Shown here: positions 1 through 7,668 of the stretch, in pieces
How the letters are laid out: every line of letters begins with the position of its first letter
Numbering within the stretch: position 1 is the stretch's first letter
Assembly (NCBI GenBank): GCA_017649485.1
Contig: JAGCGS010000001.1
Span: 1-44,641, forward strand
Length of the DNA: 44,641 nucleotides
Direction: 5' to 3'
DNA from: Bacteroidaceae bacterium
Lineage (GTDB): Bacteria; Bacteroidota; Bacteroidia; Bacteroidales; Bacteroidaceae
Notes under the pieces: model-generated
What the model was told of the DNA's origin: nothing
The model's input: only the letters and a program-made list of their open reading frames with translations
Databases searched by the model: none
Translations under genes and position numbers: made by a program

Positions 1-53
1 AGTGATTTAACCATTCAATTAATTGACTAATTATTCTCAATATTAATACTAAC

Positions 54-78
54 AAGCAGGGGGACCCACCCTGCTTTT
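54..78 (+). terminator. Rho-independent terminator
   Basis: An 8-bp perfect stem (54-61 with 69-76) with a 7-nt loop is followed by a short T run. It probably ends a transcript entering from the left of the window. It lies directly upstream of the incomplete propeller gene, so that gene would need its own promoter, and none is obvious. Confidence 0.8.
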
Positions 79-98
79 GTTATGAATGTACTAGTTAT

Positions 99-983
99 TT
101 GCTTAATGTGCTTTTTTTTGAGGAGGTTCTAACTAGTAGATTCGCATATATAAAAATTGCAGGTGATTTTTTGCTTGTTTCTGATTTGCGTTCTTCTGAC
201 AAACTTATTCATTTGTATTATAAGAAAACTTATAAATACTGCGGTAGTACTGGTGATTTAGGGCAAGGCCCTGGCGAAATAGCATCAATAGGTCCGATAG
301 CATATGATGATATTAATTGTTTGCTTTATGTATTGGATTATGGTTCCATGAATGTGTATAGCTTCAACATAAAAAAAGCGATTTCAGATGCAGATTACTT
401 GCCAGAGATAAAATGTAAAATAGATAAGAATTCTTATCCCATTGACTTTGCTTATGTTAATGATACGTTATGTTATGGGGCATTCTCTATCCCTAAGGGG
501 AATGATGTTCAAGATATATCTGGGAAATGGAATATGCTAACAGGCGATGTAATCATACATAAGCAGGAGTATCCAGGTTTAAAAGTTGAACGTGTAGTCT
601 CTGATTATTCATTGAAAAACAAACTGATAGTGGAGTGTAGTACTCGATATGATTTAATGAGCATTTTTAATGAGGATTTGTCTTTGAAGCATAGAATTTA
701 TGGACCTAATTGGAATAAGAATGGTGATTATAAATCACATTTTAAAAGTGTAGTGTTCTATAAAGATTATATCATAGCTTCGTATGATGGGACAAAATAC
801 GAAGAATATAATAAGCCTAAAGTCTGTCATGTGTTTGACTTGGATGGTAATTATATCAAAACCCTTGATGTTGGGTATAGAATCTGGCGCATGAGTGTGG
901 ACGAAGATAATGACCGTCTGTTTTTTACTTTTGATGACGAGATACAGTTCGGCTATCTGGACTTGAAAGGGATATTAGACTAA
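99..983 (+). CDS. BF3164-like six-bladed beta-propeller protein, N-terminally incomplete
   Basis: This 294-residue frame has the signature of Bacteroidales six-bladed propeller lipoproteins (BF3164-like/TolB-like family). Near residues 53-60 it carries the D-L-G-Q-G-P-G-E turn, followed by alternating beta-rich segments to the C-terminus GILD. Family members normally begin with a lipoprotein signal peptide and a further strand, both missing here. The only start in this frame is TTG at 99. An ATG at 82 opens a hydrophobic peptide in another frame that stops at 130, and the two frames would join if the T8 run at 112-119 had one more T. The gene is AT-rich like the next gene. I read it as truncated or frameshifted. 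Family call is fairly sure; whether it is expressed is uncertain. Confidence 0.65.
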   Translation: MLNVLFFEEVLTSRFAYIKIAGDFLLVSDLRSSDKLIHLYYKKTYKYCGSTGDLGQGPGEIASIGPIAYDDINCLLYVLDYGSMNVYSFNIKKAISDADYLPEIKCKIDKNSYPIDFAYVNDTLCYGAFSIPKGNDVQDISGKWNMLTGDVIIHKQEYPGLKVERVVSDYSLKNKLIVECSTRYDLMSIFNEDLSLKHRIYGPNWNKNGDYKSHFKSVVFYKDYIIASYDGTKYEEYNKPKVCHVFDLDGNYIKTLDVGYRIWRMSVDEDNDRLFFTFDDEIQFGYLDLKGILD

Positions 984-1124
984 GAATAGGAATTGAAGAA
1001 GTGGCTTGGCATACTGGTGAACATTGTGTTCTATGGGAGCTTGGCGGTGGTAGGATATCTGCTGCTGCAAATATTTCTCTTAGTGTCGTTTAAGGTGCCA
1101 ACCAATTCTATGTTGCCTGAATGA
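971..1124 (+). repeat. Direct repeat copy A (propeller end plus lepB start)
   Basis: This stretch matches 3942-4092. It starts with the last codons of the propeller gene, runs through a short spacer, and continues into the first 43 codons of a lepB-like frame. In the lepB part I count about 17 differences in 129 bases by eye. The two copies flank the C10 protease and serpin genes. Confidence 0.85.
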
Positions 1125-1130
1125 TGCCGT
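993..1130 (+). pseudogene. Signal peptidase I fragment (decayed lepB copy)
   Basis: A TTG at 993 opens 43 codons that parallel the start of the intact lepB at 3964. The membrane segment and the catalytic-serine box P-T-N-S-M are kept. Against the intact copy one base is missing, so GAAATGATG reads GAATGATG, and the frame stops at 1122-1124. Homology fades just after 1130. Most changes are synonymous or conservative, so the copy was probably once functional and diverged before it was broken. The catalytic lysine and box E regions are absent, so no active enzyme can be made. Confidence 0.85.
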
Positions 1131-1197
1131 GGCTTTATTATCTTTCGATGGAGTTATTCTTATCGGCTATTTTGACTTGGATAAAGTGTTGGATTGA
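1129..1197 (+). pseudogene. C-terminal remnant of a second beta-propeller gene
   Basis: Read from 1129, the frame gives about 22 codons ending D-L-D-K-V-L-D-stop at 1197. This is clearly related to the end of the propeller gene at 99-983 (D-L-K-G-I-L-D-stop), including the preceding F-D and G-Y motifs. It abuts the lepB fragment with no spacer, so the join is a deletion scar. It implies that a second propeller gene once stood here. Confidence 0.75.
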
Positions 1198-1226
1198 TAT
1201 TAGTAACAATTAAAAAAATATGAATT

Positions 1227-2627
1227 ATGAATAAAAAGTTTTTTTCAATTACTGTGTTGTCATTAATTTGCTTCTTTTCTTGCATCTCTTGTACAAATGA
1301 AGAAGATTATTCAATTGTTCAGGAAGGCCATACAAGATTAGAAGTTGCTACCTTCAATGTAAATGTTCTTGATGACATCCAGAAGTACGTAAACTATAGA
1401 ATGGCTGAAAGTGCAGATACAAGAAGTCTGCAAAATATTTGTTATGAACCCTATACAATTGCTGGTGATACGGCACTATATATTGTTAACTATGCCGATG
1501 GATGGGATGTTATGTCAACAGACCAACGTACTCCTATGGTTATGATGTCTTCTGATTCTGGCCATTTGGATGGAAGGAACCTTCCATATCCTCTAAGAGC
1601 TTATATAGGTAGTATAGCAAACGAAATACATCAACTGAAACAGATAGAGAATGTTAATAATGTTATTCATCCTGAGTGGCTAAAAATGCCTTCAAAAGAG
1701 GATTTGCACGACACGGAAAAAGAAGGGAACACCAGAGACGGATTGGAACCAGGTGTGGGCTATTGGGAACTGCTATATTCGATAACTGTCGGTACTCCTA
1801 CTGTTACTGAGTCTCCAAAAATGACAAGTACCTCATGGGATCAAGAAGATCCTTGGAATTATTATATTCCGTATGCAGCTGATAGTGCTTATTATGTAGG
1901 ACCAGCAGGATGTGGCGCAGTTGCTTCTGCTCAATATCTTTATTATCTCCATTCAAAATATGGAGTTCCTACTTCAGCTGTAACCTCAGCAACAATTAAT
2001 AATGCAAATACCCACACTTTCACTTTCTCAAACAAAACAACTACAGCTTGGAACAATATGGCATTAAATGGAAATGGTACGACTAATGCAAAGAGAAAAT
2101 CTGCCATGTTAATAGCATATTCAGCTGACAGAATAGGAACCCAATACTATAAGGATGGTGCATATTCATCATTTAATAATGATATTTCTTTCATTAATTC
2201 AGAGACAGGTTATCACTTTTATTCCGCAAATTATGATTATAACTACGTGATAAATCAATTGCTTAATAATAAAGCTGTTTTAATGAGAGCTGAAGATACT
2301 TCAACATCGGATGGTCATGTTTTTATTGCAGATAGGATAATAACAACGAATACTACATATTGTGATTATTATGGATGGGTTGGAACGACTAGTACAGGTG
2401 AAAGCGCAAATTACATTGATGAAAGCAATGGTCATATTATCGGGTATAAAATTAAGAAACAAGAGATTGTGACTCGGACAACATATAGTTACAAAATGAA
2501 TTGGGGCTGGGGTGGAGATAATGATAATGTGGTTTGCAATCCATATAGTATAAATGACTGGTTTGTCACGATGAGTGATGGGCAGCAGTATCATTTTAAC
2601 AGTGGTCGCAAAATGGCGAGACAATAA
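1227..2627 (+). CDS. Exported C10 family (streptopain-type) cysteine protease
   Basis: The 466-residue protein starts with a signal peptide and possible lipobox Cys22. A SpeB/streptopain-type propeptide region follows around residues 80-115 (the Y-I-V-N-Y-A-D-G-W stretch). The papain-fold catalytic domain has nucleophile Cys229 in G-P-A-G-C-G-A, general base His364 in D-G-H-V-F, and the N-W-G-W-G-G box at 425-430 typical of family C10. All catalytic elements are present, so an active zymogen is expected at the cell surface or outside. The Cys motif lacks the usual G-C-V-A-T form. The next gene, 94 nt away, encodes a serpin. Related enzymes include Prevotella interpain and Bacteroides Bfp/Btp proteases; the substrate here is unknown. 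The gene is clearly AT-richer than the housekeeping part of the window, suggesting transfer. Confidence 0.9.
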   Translation: MNKKFFSITVLSLICFFSCISCTNEEDYSIVQEGHTRLEVATFNVNVLDDIQKYVNYRMAESADTRSLQNICYEPYTIAGDTALYIVNYADGWDVMSTDQRTPMVMMSSDSGHLDGRNLPYPLRAYIGSIANEIHQLKQIENVNNVIHPEWLKMPSKEDLHDTEKEGNTRDGLEPGVGYWELLYSITVGTPTVTESPKMTSTSWDQEDPWNYYIPYAADSAYYVGPAGCGAVASAQYLYYLHSKYGVPTSAVTSATINNANTHTFTFSNKTTTAWNNMALNGNGTTNAKRKSAMLIAYSADRIGTQYYKDGAYSSFNNDISFINSETGYHFYSANYDYNYVINQLLNNKAVLMRAEDTSTSDGHVFIADRIITTNTTYCDYYGWVGTTSTGESANYIDESNGHIIGYKIKKQEIVTRTTYSYKMNWGWGGDNDNVVCNPYSINDWFVTMSDGQQYHFNSGRKMARQ

Positions 2628-2721
2628 TAACTTATAGATTTATCACTTTTTCGTGCAATGTTTTCATGTTTCTGTATTTTATGGGAGTAAGAGATGTAGA
2701 AAAAATTAAACATGATGAATT

Positions 2722-3936
2722 ATGAAAAAGGTATTATTATTTCTGTTAGCAGTAGCTTTGTACGGTTGTGGTGACGAAGAGCAAATTGCCAATACGAGGA
2801 ATGAGGCAGAACCCATTGAACTCAATGGGGAGCAGATGGAGATTAATTCAAGCTTGCAATCTTTCTCCTGGGAATTCTTTTCACAAGTTTATCGCGGCAA
2901 GGGTGACGGGAATAATATAATCGTGTCGCCCATTAGTTTGGAAATGAATCTTGGTATGTTGCTTATCGGACTGACAGGAAACAGTAAGCAAGAATTGTTG
3001 AAGGTCATGCATCTGCAAGGGCATGATACCAATGACATAGACTTGTTCTTCAAGAGAATGATGGAGGGGATACAAAGGACTGATAAGCAGACCACTTTCA
3101 ATAGTGCCAATTCTTTTTGGTTTGATGAGAAATACAGGGTGGCAAAAGACTTCAGCTCTGTTATCAAAAATAACTATGGTGCTGAAGTCGGAAGTGTTGA
3201 TTTTGCCGACATCAAGGCCAAGGACACCATAAACAAGTGGTGTGCTCAGCAGACCAATCAGCGTATTCTCCAGATTGTCAATGACACAAATCCAGACATG
3301 CTGTTCTATCTTATCAATGCCATCTATTTTGACTCTACCTGGGAAAAGCCTTTTGAGAAAGGTGATTATGAAATATTTACTTATGAAAATGGAACCCAAG
3401 ACAAGATCAGGATGATGGAGAAGAAGGGTAACTGGCTTTTTTCAGAGCGTGATTCATATATGATTTGCAGTATGCCATATACCAACGGCTCTTTCAGTAT
3501 GTTGCTGATTTTGCCAAAGGTGGGATATGATGTAAAAGATGTAATGGCTAATTTAGAAGTTGAGGATTTGTTGCTGAGTAGGATGTATAATACCGATGTT
3601 CATGTCTGGATGCCTGAGTTTCAATGTGTTTATCCTATCAATGACATCTACGCAAAACTCATGGATATGAATCCAAACTTTGTGTTGAATGCCAATGAGA
3701 TGGATATGTTTGATGAAGCAATAAAGGGTGATGTGTATATAGCTCAGAAAAACTACATCAAAGTGGATGAGCGGGGAACTGAAGCTGCCACAGTTACTTA
3801 TACCGGGATGGAGGCTACTGCTCCTCCAGCTTTTGAGCGGAAGTATGTTGAGATGCATTTCGACCATCCCTTCCTTTACAGTATTATAGAAACAAGTACC
3901 AACTGCCCTTTGTTTATCGGATATCATGGCAATTGA
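2722..3936 (+). CDS. Serpin-family protease inhibitor, lipoprotein
   Basis: The 404-residue protein has a short signal peptide with lipobox L-Y-G-Cys16 and then a full-length serpin fold. The hinge of the reactive-centre loop is of inhibitory type: Glu350 (P17), Gly352, Thr353 and Glu354-Ala-Ala, with small residues following. Counting 17 residues from Glu350 puts P1 at Thr366, but the exact scissile bond cannot be fixed by eye. The conserved H-P-F-L-Y strand comes later. It is the downstream neighbour of the C10 protease, and both genes share the same bases around their starts (ATGAATTATGAA). Bacterial serpins such as Tannerella miropin inhibit several protease classes. Whether this one protects the producer from its own protease or blocks host enzymes is inference. 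Confidence 0.93.
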   Translation: MKKVLLFLLAVALYGCGDEEQIANTRNEAEPIELNGEQMEINSSLQSFSWEFFSQVYRGKGDGNNIIVSPISLEMNLGMLLIGLTGNSKQELLKVMHLQGHDTNDIDLFFKRMMEGIQRTDKQTTFNSANSFWFDEKYRVAKDFSSVIKNNYGAEVGSVDFADIKAKDTINKWCAQQTNQRILQIVNDTNPDMLFYLINAIYFDSTWEKPFEKGDYEIFTYENGTQDKIRMMEKKGNWLFSERDSYMICSMPYTNGSFSMLLILPKVGYDVKDVMANLEVEDLLLSRMYNTDVHVWMPEFQCVYPINDIYAKLMDMNPNFVLNANEMDMFDEAIKGDVYIAQKNYIKVDERGTEAATVTYTGMEATAPPAFERKYVEMHFDHPFLYSIIETSTNCPLFIGYHGN

Positions 3937-3941
3937 GGTAT

Positions 3942-4092
3942 GATATTAGACTGAGGAGATGAATTGAAGAAATGCCTCAACATACTGGTGAACTTAGTGT
4001 TCTATGGGTGCCTGGCAGTGGTGGGGTATCTGCTGCTGCAAGTATTTCTCTTGGTATCGTTTAAGGTGCCGACCAATTCTATGGTGCCTGAA
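3942..4092 (+). repeat. Direct repeat copy B (propeller end plus lepB start)
   Basis: This is the second copy of the 971-1124 repeat. The first ten bases equal the end of the propeller gene, although here they follow a serpin, so they are an orphan tail of a lost propeller gene. The rest is the 5' end of the intact lepB. Confidence 0.85.
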
Positions 4093-4842
4093 ATGATGCC
4101 GGGAGATTTTATTTTGGTTGAGAAGCTCAGCATGGGACCGAGGCTGTTTGATGTGTTCAAGGCCACAAGATTAGAGGAGGTTGAGATTCATCGCCTGCCA
4201 GGACTGAGGGGCATCAGGCGGAATGATGTGGTGGTGTTTAACTTTCCCTACGAGTATGGGCGATGGGACAGCATAAGGTTTCATGTGATGAAATACTATA
4301 CGAAACGCTGCATCGGACTGCCTGGTGATACCATCAGTATAAGGAACGGATTGTATCAGATAGCTGGCGAGAAAGGGGAAATAGAAAAACGTTCACAACA
4401 GATGGAGTTGGCTCTGTTCTCAGACAGCATACTCTCGGAGAGGTTTCCTGACCCTGTGTATCCAGAGGCATCGGCAGGTGTAGGCATGGGTTGGACACTG
4501 AAGGAGTTTGGTCCCCTGCCCATTCCCAAGCGCGGGCAAAAAGTGAGGATGGACAGCACAGCCTGGAAACTCTATCACCAGTTGGTGGAATGGGAGCAGA
4601 AGAGGAAGCTGACGGTTGATGACCAGGGAGTGGTGAGGATGGGAGGGGATGCCATTCAGGAATACACCTTTACCCATGACTATTACTTCATGGCTGGCGA
4701 CAATGCCGTCAGCTCCATCGATTCCCGCTTCTGGGGCTTGGTGCCAGATGACTATATCGTGGGCAGGGTTTGGCGCATCTGGAAGTCGGTTGACAGCAAA
4801 GGCAAAGTGAGGTGGGATAGGGTCTTTAAGAAGGTGAACTGA
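3964..4842 (+). CDS. lepB: Signal peptidase I (S26A)
   Basis: The 292-residue enzyme cleaves signal peptides at the outer face of the inner membrane. An N-terminal membrane segment (about 8-32) is followed by catalytic Ser39 in P-T-N-S-M, catalytic Lys114 in K-R-C-I-G-L-P-G-D, and box E near the C-terminus (G-D-N-A-V-S-S-I-D-S-R). The start is TTG at 3964 with GAGGAG just upstream. The ATG at 3959 hits a stop at once and no ATG lies in frame nearby. It follows an exported protease and its inhibitor and may be a dedicated extra peptidase rather than the main housekeeping enzyme. A broken paralogue of its 5' end lies at 993-1130. Confidence 0.93.
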   Translation: MKKCLNILVNLVFYGCLAVVGYLLLQVFLLVSFKVPTNSMVPEMMPGDFILVEKLSMGPRLFDVFKATRLEEVEIHRLPGLRGIRRNDVVVFNFPYEYGRWDSIRFHVMKYYTKRCIGLPGDTISIRNGLYQIAGEKGEIEKRSQQMELALFSDSILSERFPDPVYPEASAGVGMGWTLKEFGPLPIPKRGQKVRMDSTAWKLYHQLVEWEQKRKLTVDDQGVVRMGGDAIQEYTFTHDYYFMAGDNAVSSIDSRFWGLVPDDYIVGRVWRIWKSVDSKGKVRWDRVFKKVN

Positions 4843-4889
4843 AGCAATAATTATATTTTGATTATATTGCCAATGGCAGTTAAGCTGAG

Positions 4890-5333
4890 ATGAAGATTGT
4901 GATTATAGAAAATGAGGATATGGCTTCCAGCTTGCGCAAAGCTTTGGGAGACAGGGCTGCGGATTTAAATGACCTTGGCGTTGAGGGCAAACATGCTCAG
5001 GAGATAGCCCGCCAGGAACCTGATGTGATACTGATGGATGAGCATATCAGGTTAGGCTCCTTCACCTTTATGCCAGACTGCATGAGGCTTGAGCGCGAAG
5101 GCCAGACGATTCGTCTCTCTAAATATCAGAACAAGCTGCTCTGCCTGCTTTGCGCATGTATGGACATTACGGTTACTCGTGATGAGATCCATCGCATGCT
5201 TTGGCCCGATATTATTGTCATCGACCAGTCTGTCAACAATCTCATCTTTCAGCTTCGCAAACTCCTCCAAGTTGATAGCCACATCCGAATTGAGAATATC
5301 AGAGGTGTAGGCTATCGGCTCTGTGTAGAGTGA
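4890..5333 (+). CDS. OmpR-type winged-helix regulator with a half-length receiver domain
   Basis: The protein has 147 residues. Residues 1-51 look like the first half of a response-regulator receiver: beta1 with an acidic cluster, then a helix and L-M-D50-E at the phosphoacceptor position. Residue 53 then runs straight into a complete OmpR/PhoB winged-helix domain ending in R-G-V-G-Y-R-L. About 60 residues covering beta4 to alpha5 are missing in frame. Such a protein cannot fold as a normal phospho-switch, so it may bind DNA constitutively or be a relic. The gene lies 47 nt after lepB and could regulate the protease cassette, but no histidine kinase is nearby. The DNA-binding call is sure; the role is inferred. 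Confidence 0.8.
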   Translation: MKIVIIENEDMASSLRKALGDRAADLNDLGVEGKHAQEIARQEPDVILMDEHIRLGSFTFMPDCMRLEREGQTIRLSKYQNKLLCLLCACMDITVTRDEIHRMLWPDIIVIDQSVNNLIFQLRKLLQVDSHIRIENIRGVGYRLCVE

Positions 5334-5443
5334 AATTGATGAAAAAAACAGAATTGCGTGTTTTTTGCCTACACAGCCTACACTATGGCTGGAAACGCTG
5401 TGTTCATGGGCGTTTGCGGGGCGTTTGCGGGGTGTAGGCAGGC

Positions 5444-5495: not shown

Positions 5496-5536
5496 CTTTT
5501 ACTTGAAGCTGATGCCTTGCTTACTTCAAGTAAAAG
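5496..5536. repeat. 13-bp stem-loop, first of a set of spaced repeats
   Basis: CTTTTACTTGAAG at 5496-5508 pairs perfectly with 5524-5536 across a 15-nt loop. The right arm belongs to a repeat of form TTAC-TTCAAGTAAAAG at 5521-5536, which recurs in altered form at 5604-5620 and 5626-5642. It could terminate the transcript from the regulator gene, but no T run follows. Confidence 0.7.
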
Positions 5537-5669
5537 GCTCGATTACTTGAACTAATCAATCTACTTCAAGCGGGCTTCACAATTCTCTCGAGAATTTAAG
5601 CTCTTACTCCAAGTAAAAGCACCGCTTACCTCCAGTAAAAGCATCTCTTACCTGCGCTATGTTCTTACT

Positions 5670-6348: not shown

Positions 6349-7668
6349 ATGACAGATAACCAGGTTTTTCAAGATAAGAAAGCGGTTTACTACACCTTGG
6401 GCTGTAAACTCAACTTCTCAGAAACGGCTACCATCAACAAAATGTTGCAGGAGGCAGGTATCCGTGATGCTCGCAGGGGCGAAGAAGCCGATGTGTGTGT
6501 TGTGAACACCTGCTCAGTTACCGAGGTGGCCGACCGCAAATGCCGACAGGCCATTCACCGCCTGCACAAGCAGCATCCCCATGCTTTCATGGTGGTTATG
6601 GGGTGCTATGCACAGCTGAAACCCCAGGTGGTTGCAAGCATCCCCGGCGTTGATATAGTCTTGGGAGCGGAACAGAAGAAAGACTTGCTTAAGTACTTGG
6701 GAGACCTATCAAAGCGTGCTGAAGGAGGTGAGGCATTTACTTCTGAGCTGAAGGATATCCGTTCGTTTTCTCCTTCTTGCTCAAGGGGCAACAGAACCCG
6801 CTATTTCCTGAAAGTGCAAGATGGCTGCAACTATTTCTGTACTTATTGTACAATACCCTTTGCCCGCGGACGGAGCCGCAACGGAAGCATAGCTTCATTG
6901 GTGAACGACGCGAGGAAAGCTGCTGCCGAAGGCGGAAAGGAAATTGTCATCACCGGCGTGAATATCGGAGATTTCGGTCAGACCACAGGCGAGACTTTTC
7001 TTGACTTGCTCAAGGCATTAGATGGGGTGGAGGGTATAGAACGTTACCGCATTTCATCTATTGAGCCTGATTTGCTGACAGATGAGGTCATCGACTTTGT
7101 GGCTCATTCCAAGCACTTTATGCCTCACTTCCATATCCCCTTGCAATCAGGATGCGACGAAGTGCTGCGTTTGATGCACAGACACTATGACAGGGCTTTG
7201 TTTGCCCATAAGATTGAGCAGATTAAAACGCTGATGCCTCATGCTTTTATTGGCGTTGATGTGATGGTGGGTACACGTGGTGAAACTGAGGAATATTTTG
7301 AGGATTCTTATCAGTTTATCAAGGGTTTGGATGTGACACAGCTGCATGTGTTCAGCTATTCTGAACGACCAGGTACTAAGGCACTTCAGATAGATTATGT
7401 GGTGCCTCCTCAGGTAAAGCACGAGCGAAGTCAGCGTCTGCTTGATTTATCTGATGTAAAAACACAAGCTTTTTACCAAAGGTATGCGGGTAAGGAGATG
7501 CCTGTCTTGTTGGAGAAATCTAAAGCTGGGCATCCTATGCATGGGTTCACACCTAATTATATACGCGTGGAGGTAGAGAACCGTCCAGAGCTGGACAATC
7601 ACATTGTGGTGGTTCGATTAGGGGAGATAAATGAAGCTGGCGATGCTTTGAAAGGAGATTTGCTATGA
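6349..7668 (+). CDS. mtaB: tRNA t6A37 methylthiotransferase (radical SAM)
   Basis: The 439-residue enzyme adds a methylthio group to t6A at position 37 of tRNAs reading ANN codons, giving ms2t6A. The N-terminal UPF0004 domain has the three cluster ligands Cys19, Cys55 and Cys86. The radical SAM domain has C-x3-C-x2-C at Cys160, Cys164 and Cys167. A short C-terminal TRAM-like region follows. The frame is open far upstream across the opposite-strand lipoprotein gene, but the promoter box and homology place the start at ATG 6349. The stop overlaps the next gene by 4 nt (ATGA), so it heads a three-gene operon. MtaB is chosen over MiaB or RimO from its length and cysteine spacing. Confidence 0.93.
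   Translation: MTDNQVFQDKKAVYYTLGCKLNFSETATINKMLQEAGIRDARRGEEADVCVVNTCSVTEVADRKCRQAIHRLHKQHPHAFMVVMGCYAQLKPQVVASIPGVDIVLGAEQKKDLLKYLGDLSKRAEGGEAFTSELKDIRSFSPSCSRGNRTRYFLKVQDGCNYFCTYCTIPFARGRSRNGSIASLVNDARKAAAEGGKEIVITGVNIGDFGQTTGETFLDLLKALDGVEGIERYRISSIEPDLLTDEVIDFVAHSKHFMPHFHIPLQSGCDEVLRLMHRHYDRALFAHKIEQIKTLMPHAFIGVDVMVGTRGETEEYFEDSYQFIKGLDVTQLHVFSYSERPGTKALQIDYVVPPQVKHERSQRLLDLSDVKTQAFYQRYAGKEMPVLLEKSKAGHPMHGFTPNYIRVEVENRPELDNHIVVVRLGEINEAGDALKGDLL

What the first reader, a model, noticed from the sequence alone, without database searches (positions are those of the whole stretch)
971..4100. Protease-serpin pair inserted in a collapsed propeller-lepB tandem array
Seen: the end of the propeller gene plus the first 43 codons of lepB occur at 971-1124 and again at 3942-4092, and a second propeller C-terminus survives at 1129-1197. 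The serpin is followed by an orphan propeller tail. Inferred: a repeated unit of propeller plus signal peptidase once existed here. It lost most of one unit and gained a C10 protease and a serpin between the copies. Repeats of this kind let the cassette expand or be lost by recombination.
Basis: partly seen in the sequence, partly recalled or inferred. Interest (0 to 1): 0.72.

Follow-up and report, generated by a model that had tools for sequence, protein, structure and literature searches.

The report
Recombination scar beside protease-serpin gene pair
In a gut bacterium of the Bacteroidaceae, a protease gene and a protease-inhibitor gene sit between two copies of the start of a signal peptidase gene, one dead and one alive, and comparison with related species shows that this spot is a worn recombination scar in a family of shuffled gene cassettes.

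Summary
The repeat is real: 971-1129 matches 3942-4101 at 86%. The lepB 5' end occurs five times in this genome. The scar (43 dead lepB codons plus a propeller C-terminus) is shared by two relatives, G013 and G006, at 83-95% identity, so it is old and no assembly artefact. G006 shows the inferred ancestry best: propeller-lepB, two propellers, scar, C10 remnant, serpin, propeller tail, second lepB.

New: the order is permuted relative to G013. Window 97-1013 is G013's propeller-lepB start (2 mismatches) and 1083-2806 its scar-C10-serpin start (2 mismatches), against a 78-82% background. They join in reverse order through a hybrid lepB start, as in a tandem-duplication or circle joint. This joint lies near a contig end and could be a chimera.

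The array unit appears to be an NVEALA leader peptide plus propeller, with lepB nearby. A 566-base tract identical between G000 and G013 begins within the NVEALA codons.

The tail behind the serpin is only about 13 bases, and no uninterrupted array was seen.

The parts
1..96 (.). Contig tip without convincing counterpart in G000 (elsewhere), G013, G006 or G029; holds a terminator-like hairpin 54-76
   Evidence: (best outside match E 0.4)
97..983 (+). 5'-truncated TolB-like propeller ('propB', ORF 99-983); near-identical to G013 propB, which in G013 lies downstream of the serpin
   Evidence: PF15869, 27.6 bits, under its cut-off 29.2; 2 mismatches in 97-1013
971..1128 (+). Scar: propeller end plus dead lepB 5' end, 43 codons (993-1124); hybrid of G013 lepB start (left) and G013 scar (right), switch between 1065 and 1079
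1129..1197 (+). Second propeller C-terminus fused behind the dead lepB start; shared with G013 and G006
1227..2627 (+). C10 cysteine peptidase, 466 aa, Cys229 and His364 conserved; lipoprotein-like N-terminus (judged by eye)
   Evidence: (PF01640 E 9.6e-16)
2722..3936 (+). Serpin, 404 aa, lipoprotein-like N-terminus (judged by eye); first 85 bases belong to the G013-like tract, the rest is diverged
   Evidence: (PF00079 E 3.2e-75)
2807..2807 (.). First mismatch after the tract near-identical to G013 (1083-2806); identity is about 85% from here on
3942..3955 (+). Remnant of a propeller end (last few codons) before lepB; same joint in G006
3964..4842 (+). Intact lepB-type signal peptidase I, 292 aa; paralogues on C56 (intact) and C41 (broken), 5' fragments on C57 and in the scar
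4890..5333 (+). ORF with a winged-helix response-regulator output domain; the lepB-regulator block recurs on C41 (89%)

Best explanation
The locus is the recombination-scarred edge of a family of NVEALA-peptide/propeller cassettes with lepB-type signal peptidase genes. An old deletion joined lepB codon ~43-50 to a propeller tail and left a dead lepB start. The C10-serpin pair lies between that scar and a live lepB in three species. Short lepB starts (120-160 nt, 83-96% alike within this genome) act as homology patches. Inferred: in a G013-like donor a crossover between the scar and the live lepB start made a tandem-duplication or circle joint (propeller - hybrid lepB start - C10 - serpin), and a piece of about 2.7 kb with this joint recombined into the resident serpin of this lineage, ending at 2806/2807. 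C10 and serpin are probably surface lipoproteins, a protease and an inhibitor that guards the cell or tunes proteolysis; this functional pairing is inferred.
For: Repeat at 86%; five lepB 5' copies in the own genome. The same scar joint occurs in G013 and G006; the G006 scar still reads in frame as a lepB-propeller fusion, while in window and G013 the frame is closed. Window 97-1013 has 2 mismatches to G013 propB-lepB, 1083-2806 has 2 to G013 scar-C10; five bases in 1014-1082 differ from both G013 copies (P about 1e-7 against the flanking rate, a test chosen after seeing the data). Six background segments are 78-82% identical between G000 and G013. Order is permuted relative to G013. Serpin debris on C19 is 93-94% like this serpin and 82-85% like that of G013, so the lineage probably once had a second copy. 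G013 and G006 serpins are 94.1% identical against a 73-79% background, pointing to a second exchange.
Against: The permuted joint, the 2806/2807 boundary and the unmatched 1-96 all lie in the first 2.8 kb of the contig, where misassembly is likeliest. G013 is a metagenome bin (by its inferred record) and G000 (82.6% complete, 69 contigs) looks like one. No uninterrupted tandem propeller-lepB array was found. The short 5' piece of the C19 debris is 90% like G006, so its source is not certain. No read data were available.
Confidence: 0.68

Rival explanations
1. The scar is real and old, but the window's first 2.8 kb is an assembly chimera: reads of a G013-like organism were joined to this genome in the serpin, and its two lepB starts were collapsed, giving a false permuted order.
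For: All three odd joints (96/97, about 1070, 2806/2807) lie at the contig end. Within 1-5400 identity to G013 is near-perfect only there.
Against: The two G013 lepB starts share exact runs of at most 28 bases, short for a collapse. The hybrid has five bases found in neither G013 copy. A 566-base identical tract also occurs on another contig, C56, which favours real exchange, although bin mixing could add both.
Confidence: 0.25
2. No array collapse: the C10-serpin pair simply inserted between a propeller and lepB, duplicating a little target sequence.
For: In G013 the order propeller - peptide - scar - C10 - serpin - peptide - propeller - lepB can be read as an insertion.
Against: The scar joins lepB to a propeller tail, which an insertion with target duplication would not make. 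The duplicated ends are 86% alike, not identical. G006 has two full lepB genes around it, and another fused lepB start exists in G000 (C57, to a GmrSD-like gene).
Confidence: 0.07
3. The pair travels on a mobile element (integrative element, phage or plasmid), as some B. fragilis C10 genes do.
For: Two of four B. fragilis 638R C10 genes lie on a conjugative-transposon-like and a prophage-like insertion (PMC2873492, abstract and passages). C10 is rare in the genus: 7 of 158 genomes at E 1e-10.
Against: No match of window 1-5400 in 72,556 plasmid or 50,697 phage records. No viral-contig locus confirmed for C10 or propeller. I recognised no integrase or transposase by eye among the ORFs listed around the pair in the window, G013 and G006; not every ORF was domain-searched.
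Confidence: 0.05

Closest known systems
bfp-bfi C10 protease/inhibitor gene pairs of Bacteroides fragilis; SpeB-Spi of Streptococcus (PMC2873492, abstract and passages seen)
   Same: A C10 protease gene beside a protease-inhibitor gene on one strand.
   Different: The neighbour is a serpin, not a staphostatin-like or Spi-like protein; no conjugative element or prophage was recognised; inhibition of this protease by this serpin is untested.
Miropin, serpin of Tannerella forsythia (PDB 5ncs best match)
   Same: Bacteroidota serpin and best solved relative; a review says that miropin also inhibits gingipain K and a calpain-like peptidase (PMC8201313, passages seen), which are cysteine peptidases (recall).
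   Different: Different loop sequence; no adjacent C10 gene is known to me for miropin (recall).
NVEALA peptides (PF14055) and TolB-like/6-bladed propeller lipoproteins
   Same: Of two G013 peptides one scores over the PF14055 cut-off (34.6) and one just under it (26.6 against 27); propA is in PF15869 and PF17170, propB just under the PF15869 cut-off.
   Different: No function in print found: 0 papers hold 'NVEALA'; of 5 papers holding 'PF14055' four concern Plasmodium by title or abstract and one is on enzyme profiles (texts not opened). The window's contig C33 has no PF14055 match and the window no motif ORF.

Membership tests
Peptidase C10 (SpeB/interpain type) | Match to the family profile | tested here: met
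   PF01640 59 bits, cut-off 26; a single-sequence PDB search found nothing at E 0.001, the 4-sequence profile found streptopain and interpain A
Peptidase C10 (SpeB/interpain type) | Catalytic Cys and His in the right places | tested here: met
   Cys229 and His364 invariant in 4 aligned homologues; profile aligns them with the GC and GHAF stretches of streptopain; which residues are catalytic is recalled
Peptidase C10 (SpeB/interpain type) | N-terminal Spi-like propeptide | tested here: inconclusive
   PF13734 22.8 bits, below cut-off 25; the profile also aligns with the zymogen's N-terminal part
Serpin | Full-length serpin domain with loop hinge | tested here: met
   PF00079 254 bits over 44-400; hinge GTEAATV aligned with miropin GTEAAAV
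Serpin | Inhibits a protease by loop insertion | not testable with these tools
   needs protein assay
Signal peptidase I | Family profile over cut-off | tested here: met
   PF10502 101 bits, TIGR02227 100.5 bits
Signal peptidase I | Ser-Lys catalytic dyad | not tested
   a PTNSM serine motif is visible (motif recalled); the lysine was not mapped
C10 protease with dedicated adjacent inhibitor (bfp-bfi type) | Adjacent staphostatin-like or Spi-like inhibitor gene | tested here: not met
   the adjacent gene is a serpin
C10 protease with dedicated adjacent inhibitor (bfp-bfi type) | Co-transcription and inhibition | not testable with these tools
   same strand, 94-base gap
   G006: propeller-lepB1, two propellers, scar, C10 remnant, serpin, tail, lepB2; the second unit is interrupted and an uninterrupted array was not seen

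The most novel reading that the evidence does not exclude
The array is a polymorphic secreted-peptide system. Each NVEALA gene encodes a conserved leader ending in NVEALA and a variable core with a C-x6/7-C loop, paired with its own propeller lipoprotein (receptor or immunity partner) and matured by lepB. Core-propeller cassettes and the C10-serpin pair are swapped between species by crossovers in the conserved leader and lepB-start sequences.
Probability: 0.2. Interest if true: 0.8.

Novelty: new variant of a known kind. Interest (0 to 1): 0.5.

Why it matters
It shows a gene-shuffling site at base resolution: a dead gene start shared by three species, a hybrid joint, and tracts near-identical between species that otherwise differ by about 20% in the segments compared. 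It also places a C10 protease beside a serpin, and points to a common uncharacterised peptide-propeller family (PF14055 matches in 82 of 158 genus genomes) whose conserved-leader, variable-core layout can be tested.

Tried and rejected
Mobile-element origin: plasmid and phage DNA searches gave nothing; two viral-contig scans gave 1 and 4 pattern matches, none confirmed. Chance or low-complexity repeat: rejected by E 1.6e-49. Scar as assembly artefact: rejected, it recurs in G013 and G006. Wider spread of the lepB start: the family search found 7 of 301 genomes at E 0.001, own genome included, the other six weak, but only two candidates per genome were scored; in the genus search five per genome were scored, so misses mean less than they seem. 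A general C10-serpin link: rejected. Of 7 C10-bearing genomes, G000 and G013 have intact neighbours, G006 an intact serpin with a C10 remnant, and G029 only an 18-residue serpin-like end downstream; G027, G420 and G025 showed no serpin in the 16-17 kb taken, although each has a serpin elsewhere. Serpins as such are common: 61 of 158 genus genomes. G419 has a 76% serpin and no C10 match, but its serpin starts under 200 bases from the contig end, so its neighbour cannot be judged. Papers; passages seen only of PMC2873492 and PMC8201313. Structure prediction was not used; it would not decide the question.
Full report
The observation. Window 971-1121 and 3942-4092 are 86% identical without gaps; blastn gives 160 columns, 86.25%, E 1.6e-49. 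The first copy is the end of a propeller gene plus a lepB start that stops after 43 codons, followed by a second propeller C-terminus ending at 1197. The second copy opens an intact signal peptidase I gene. Between them lie an intact C10 peptidase ORF and an intact serpin ORF. The tail behind the serpin is only about 13 bases of propeller end.

The own genome. The 227-base scar query finds five places: the window twice, C57, C56 and C41. With the lepB protein the same loci appear, plus a distant lepB on C19. C56 carries an intact lepB, C41 a broken one. On C57 the first 63 or so lepB codons run in frame into a GmrSD-like gene, giving a 541-aa ORF. A further propeller-tail/lepB-start fragment lies on C56 near 41.1 kb. 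On C19 a propeller piece, a serpin piece (residues 99-119) and the serpin end (349-404) are fused; the serpin parts are 93-94% identical to the window serpin, 82-85% to G013 and 85-90% to G006. I read this as a second serpin copy that was gained and then lost.

Relatives. Of 158 genus genomes (own included), five match the scar query at E 0.001: G000, G013, G006, G029 and, by 28 bases only, G070; none of the 93 more complete genomes does (five candidates scored per genome; one search scored up to eight in 99 of them with the same result). G013 is probably the sheep-rumen bin RGIG6796: contig length 168,433 and layout agree between and locus L055; this identification is an inference. G013 reads propA, NVEALA peptide, scar, C10, serpin, NVEALA peptide, propB, lepB, then an HlyD-like and an RND-like gene (these two named by eye). 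G006 reads propeller, lepB1, propA-like, propeller, scar, C10 remnant, serpin, propeller tail, lepB2. G029 has propeller-lepB at two places without the pair. The scar joint is the same in window, G013 and G006; in G006 the fused frame is still open, in window and G013 it is not. So the scar is older than the split of these species or has moved between them, and it is not an assembly error.

Mosaic. Six orthologous segments downstream are 78-82% identical between G000 and G013, and 73-80% among the relatives. Against this, window 97-1013 has 2 mismatches to G013 propB-lepB and 1083-2806 has 2 to G013 scar-C10-serpin start; beyond 2807 identity is about 85%. In G013 these two blocks occur in the opposite order. 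They meet in the window inside a lepB start whose left part follows G013's live lepB and whose right part follows G013's scar, with the switch between 1065 and 1079; five bases in 1014-1082 differ from both, against four in the 2,641 flanking bases (P about 1e-7, test chosen afterwards). This is what a crossover between the two lepB starts of a G013-like locus gives, as a tandem duplication or a circle, plus some further change in the repeat. A bare collapse of G013 reads would have to use an exact run of at most 28 bases and would not make the five private bases. Still, the joint lies 1.07 kb from the contig end and 1-96 matches nothing convincing in four genomes, so I keep a chimera at about one in four. 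G013 and G006 serpins are 94.1% identical against a 73-79% background, which points to a second exchange.

What the array is. Upstream of many propellers lies a short gene of the NVEALA family, PF14055: 10 matches in G000 at E 0.1, 9 over the cut-off, all on C41, C56 and C57. At that loose limit 3 of 14 control genomes also ring, 1 over the cut-off; at E 1e-5 one does, Bacteroides ihuae. I took 17 distinct peptides by a motif search in the loci of G000, G013, G006 and G029; two over-cut-off matches are not among them. The leaders are on average 56% identical in protein, the cores 20%; 17 of 17 cores contain two cysteines 6 or 7 residues apart, but 5 of the 17 have more than two cysteines, where this says less. 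In 25 loci of other Bacteroidota (L056-L080), 18 such ORFs were found; 17 of 18 have a loop of 6-8 residues, but only 6 of 18 have a propeller match within 600 bases downstream, so the pairing is looser or less detectable there. A tract of 566 identical bases between G013 and G000 C56 starts within the NVEALA codons and covers the core plus the first part of propA. So cassette exchange seems to use conserved leaders as it uses lepB starts.

Named loci. 15 of 80 have a propeller match within the fetched flanks (up to 8 kb), 3 of 80 have more than one lepB match, and 1 of 80 (L055, taken to be G013 itself) has C10 and serpin.

Function. C10 has conserved Cys229 and His364 and, by eye, a lipoprotein-like N-terminus; the serpin is closest among solved structures to miropin. 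In B. fragilis two C10 genes stand beside, and are co-transcribed with, staphostatin-like inhibitor genes (PMC2873492, abstract and passages); miropin is reported to inhibit gingipain K and a calpain-like peptidase as well as serine proteases (PMC8201313, passages). A surface protease with a serpin that guards the cell or tunes proteolysis is thus plausible. Against a strict pair: in G006 C10 has decayed while the serpin ORF is intact, and G419 has the serpin but no C10 match in its genome, itself only 78% complete. Shown: anatomy, identities, scar conservation, mosaic. Inferred: order of events, circle or duplication, function.

Verdict. The details change: the scar is old and shared, the window's order is a permuted derivative, and the repeating cassette looks like NVEALA peptide plus propeller.

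Noticed in passing
L006:650-2275 (G000:C57, minus strand): In-frame fusion of about 63 lepB codons to a GmrSD-like restriction gene (541 aa ORF).
   Followed up: partly
L041:5827-6392 and L007:11357-11922: 566 bases identical between G013 and G000 C56, starting inside the NVEALA codons, against an ~80% background.
   Followed up: partly
L041, L042, L006, L007, L008, L043, L044: NVEALA leader peptides with variable cores holding a C-x6/7-C spacing, many of them upstream of propeller genes; PF14055 occurs in 82 of 158 genus genomes.
   Followed up: partly
L046:384-660 (G000:C19, minus strand): Fused debris of a propeller and two serpin pieces at a contig end, next to a TPR gene.
   Followed up: yes
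L139:7037-7762 and 6559-6774 (G029): A C10 homologue (56%) is followed by a 241-aa ORF without a Pfam match and then by an 18-residue serpin-like end.
   Followed up: no
window 5498-5660: Four imperfect 36-base repeats (CTTACT..AAGTAA type) behind the regulator gene.
   Followed up: no
window 3964-5341 and L008:5916-7292: lepB and a response-regulator output domain form a block repeated on C33 and C41 at 89%.
   Followed up: no
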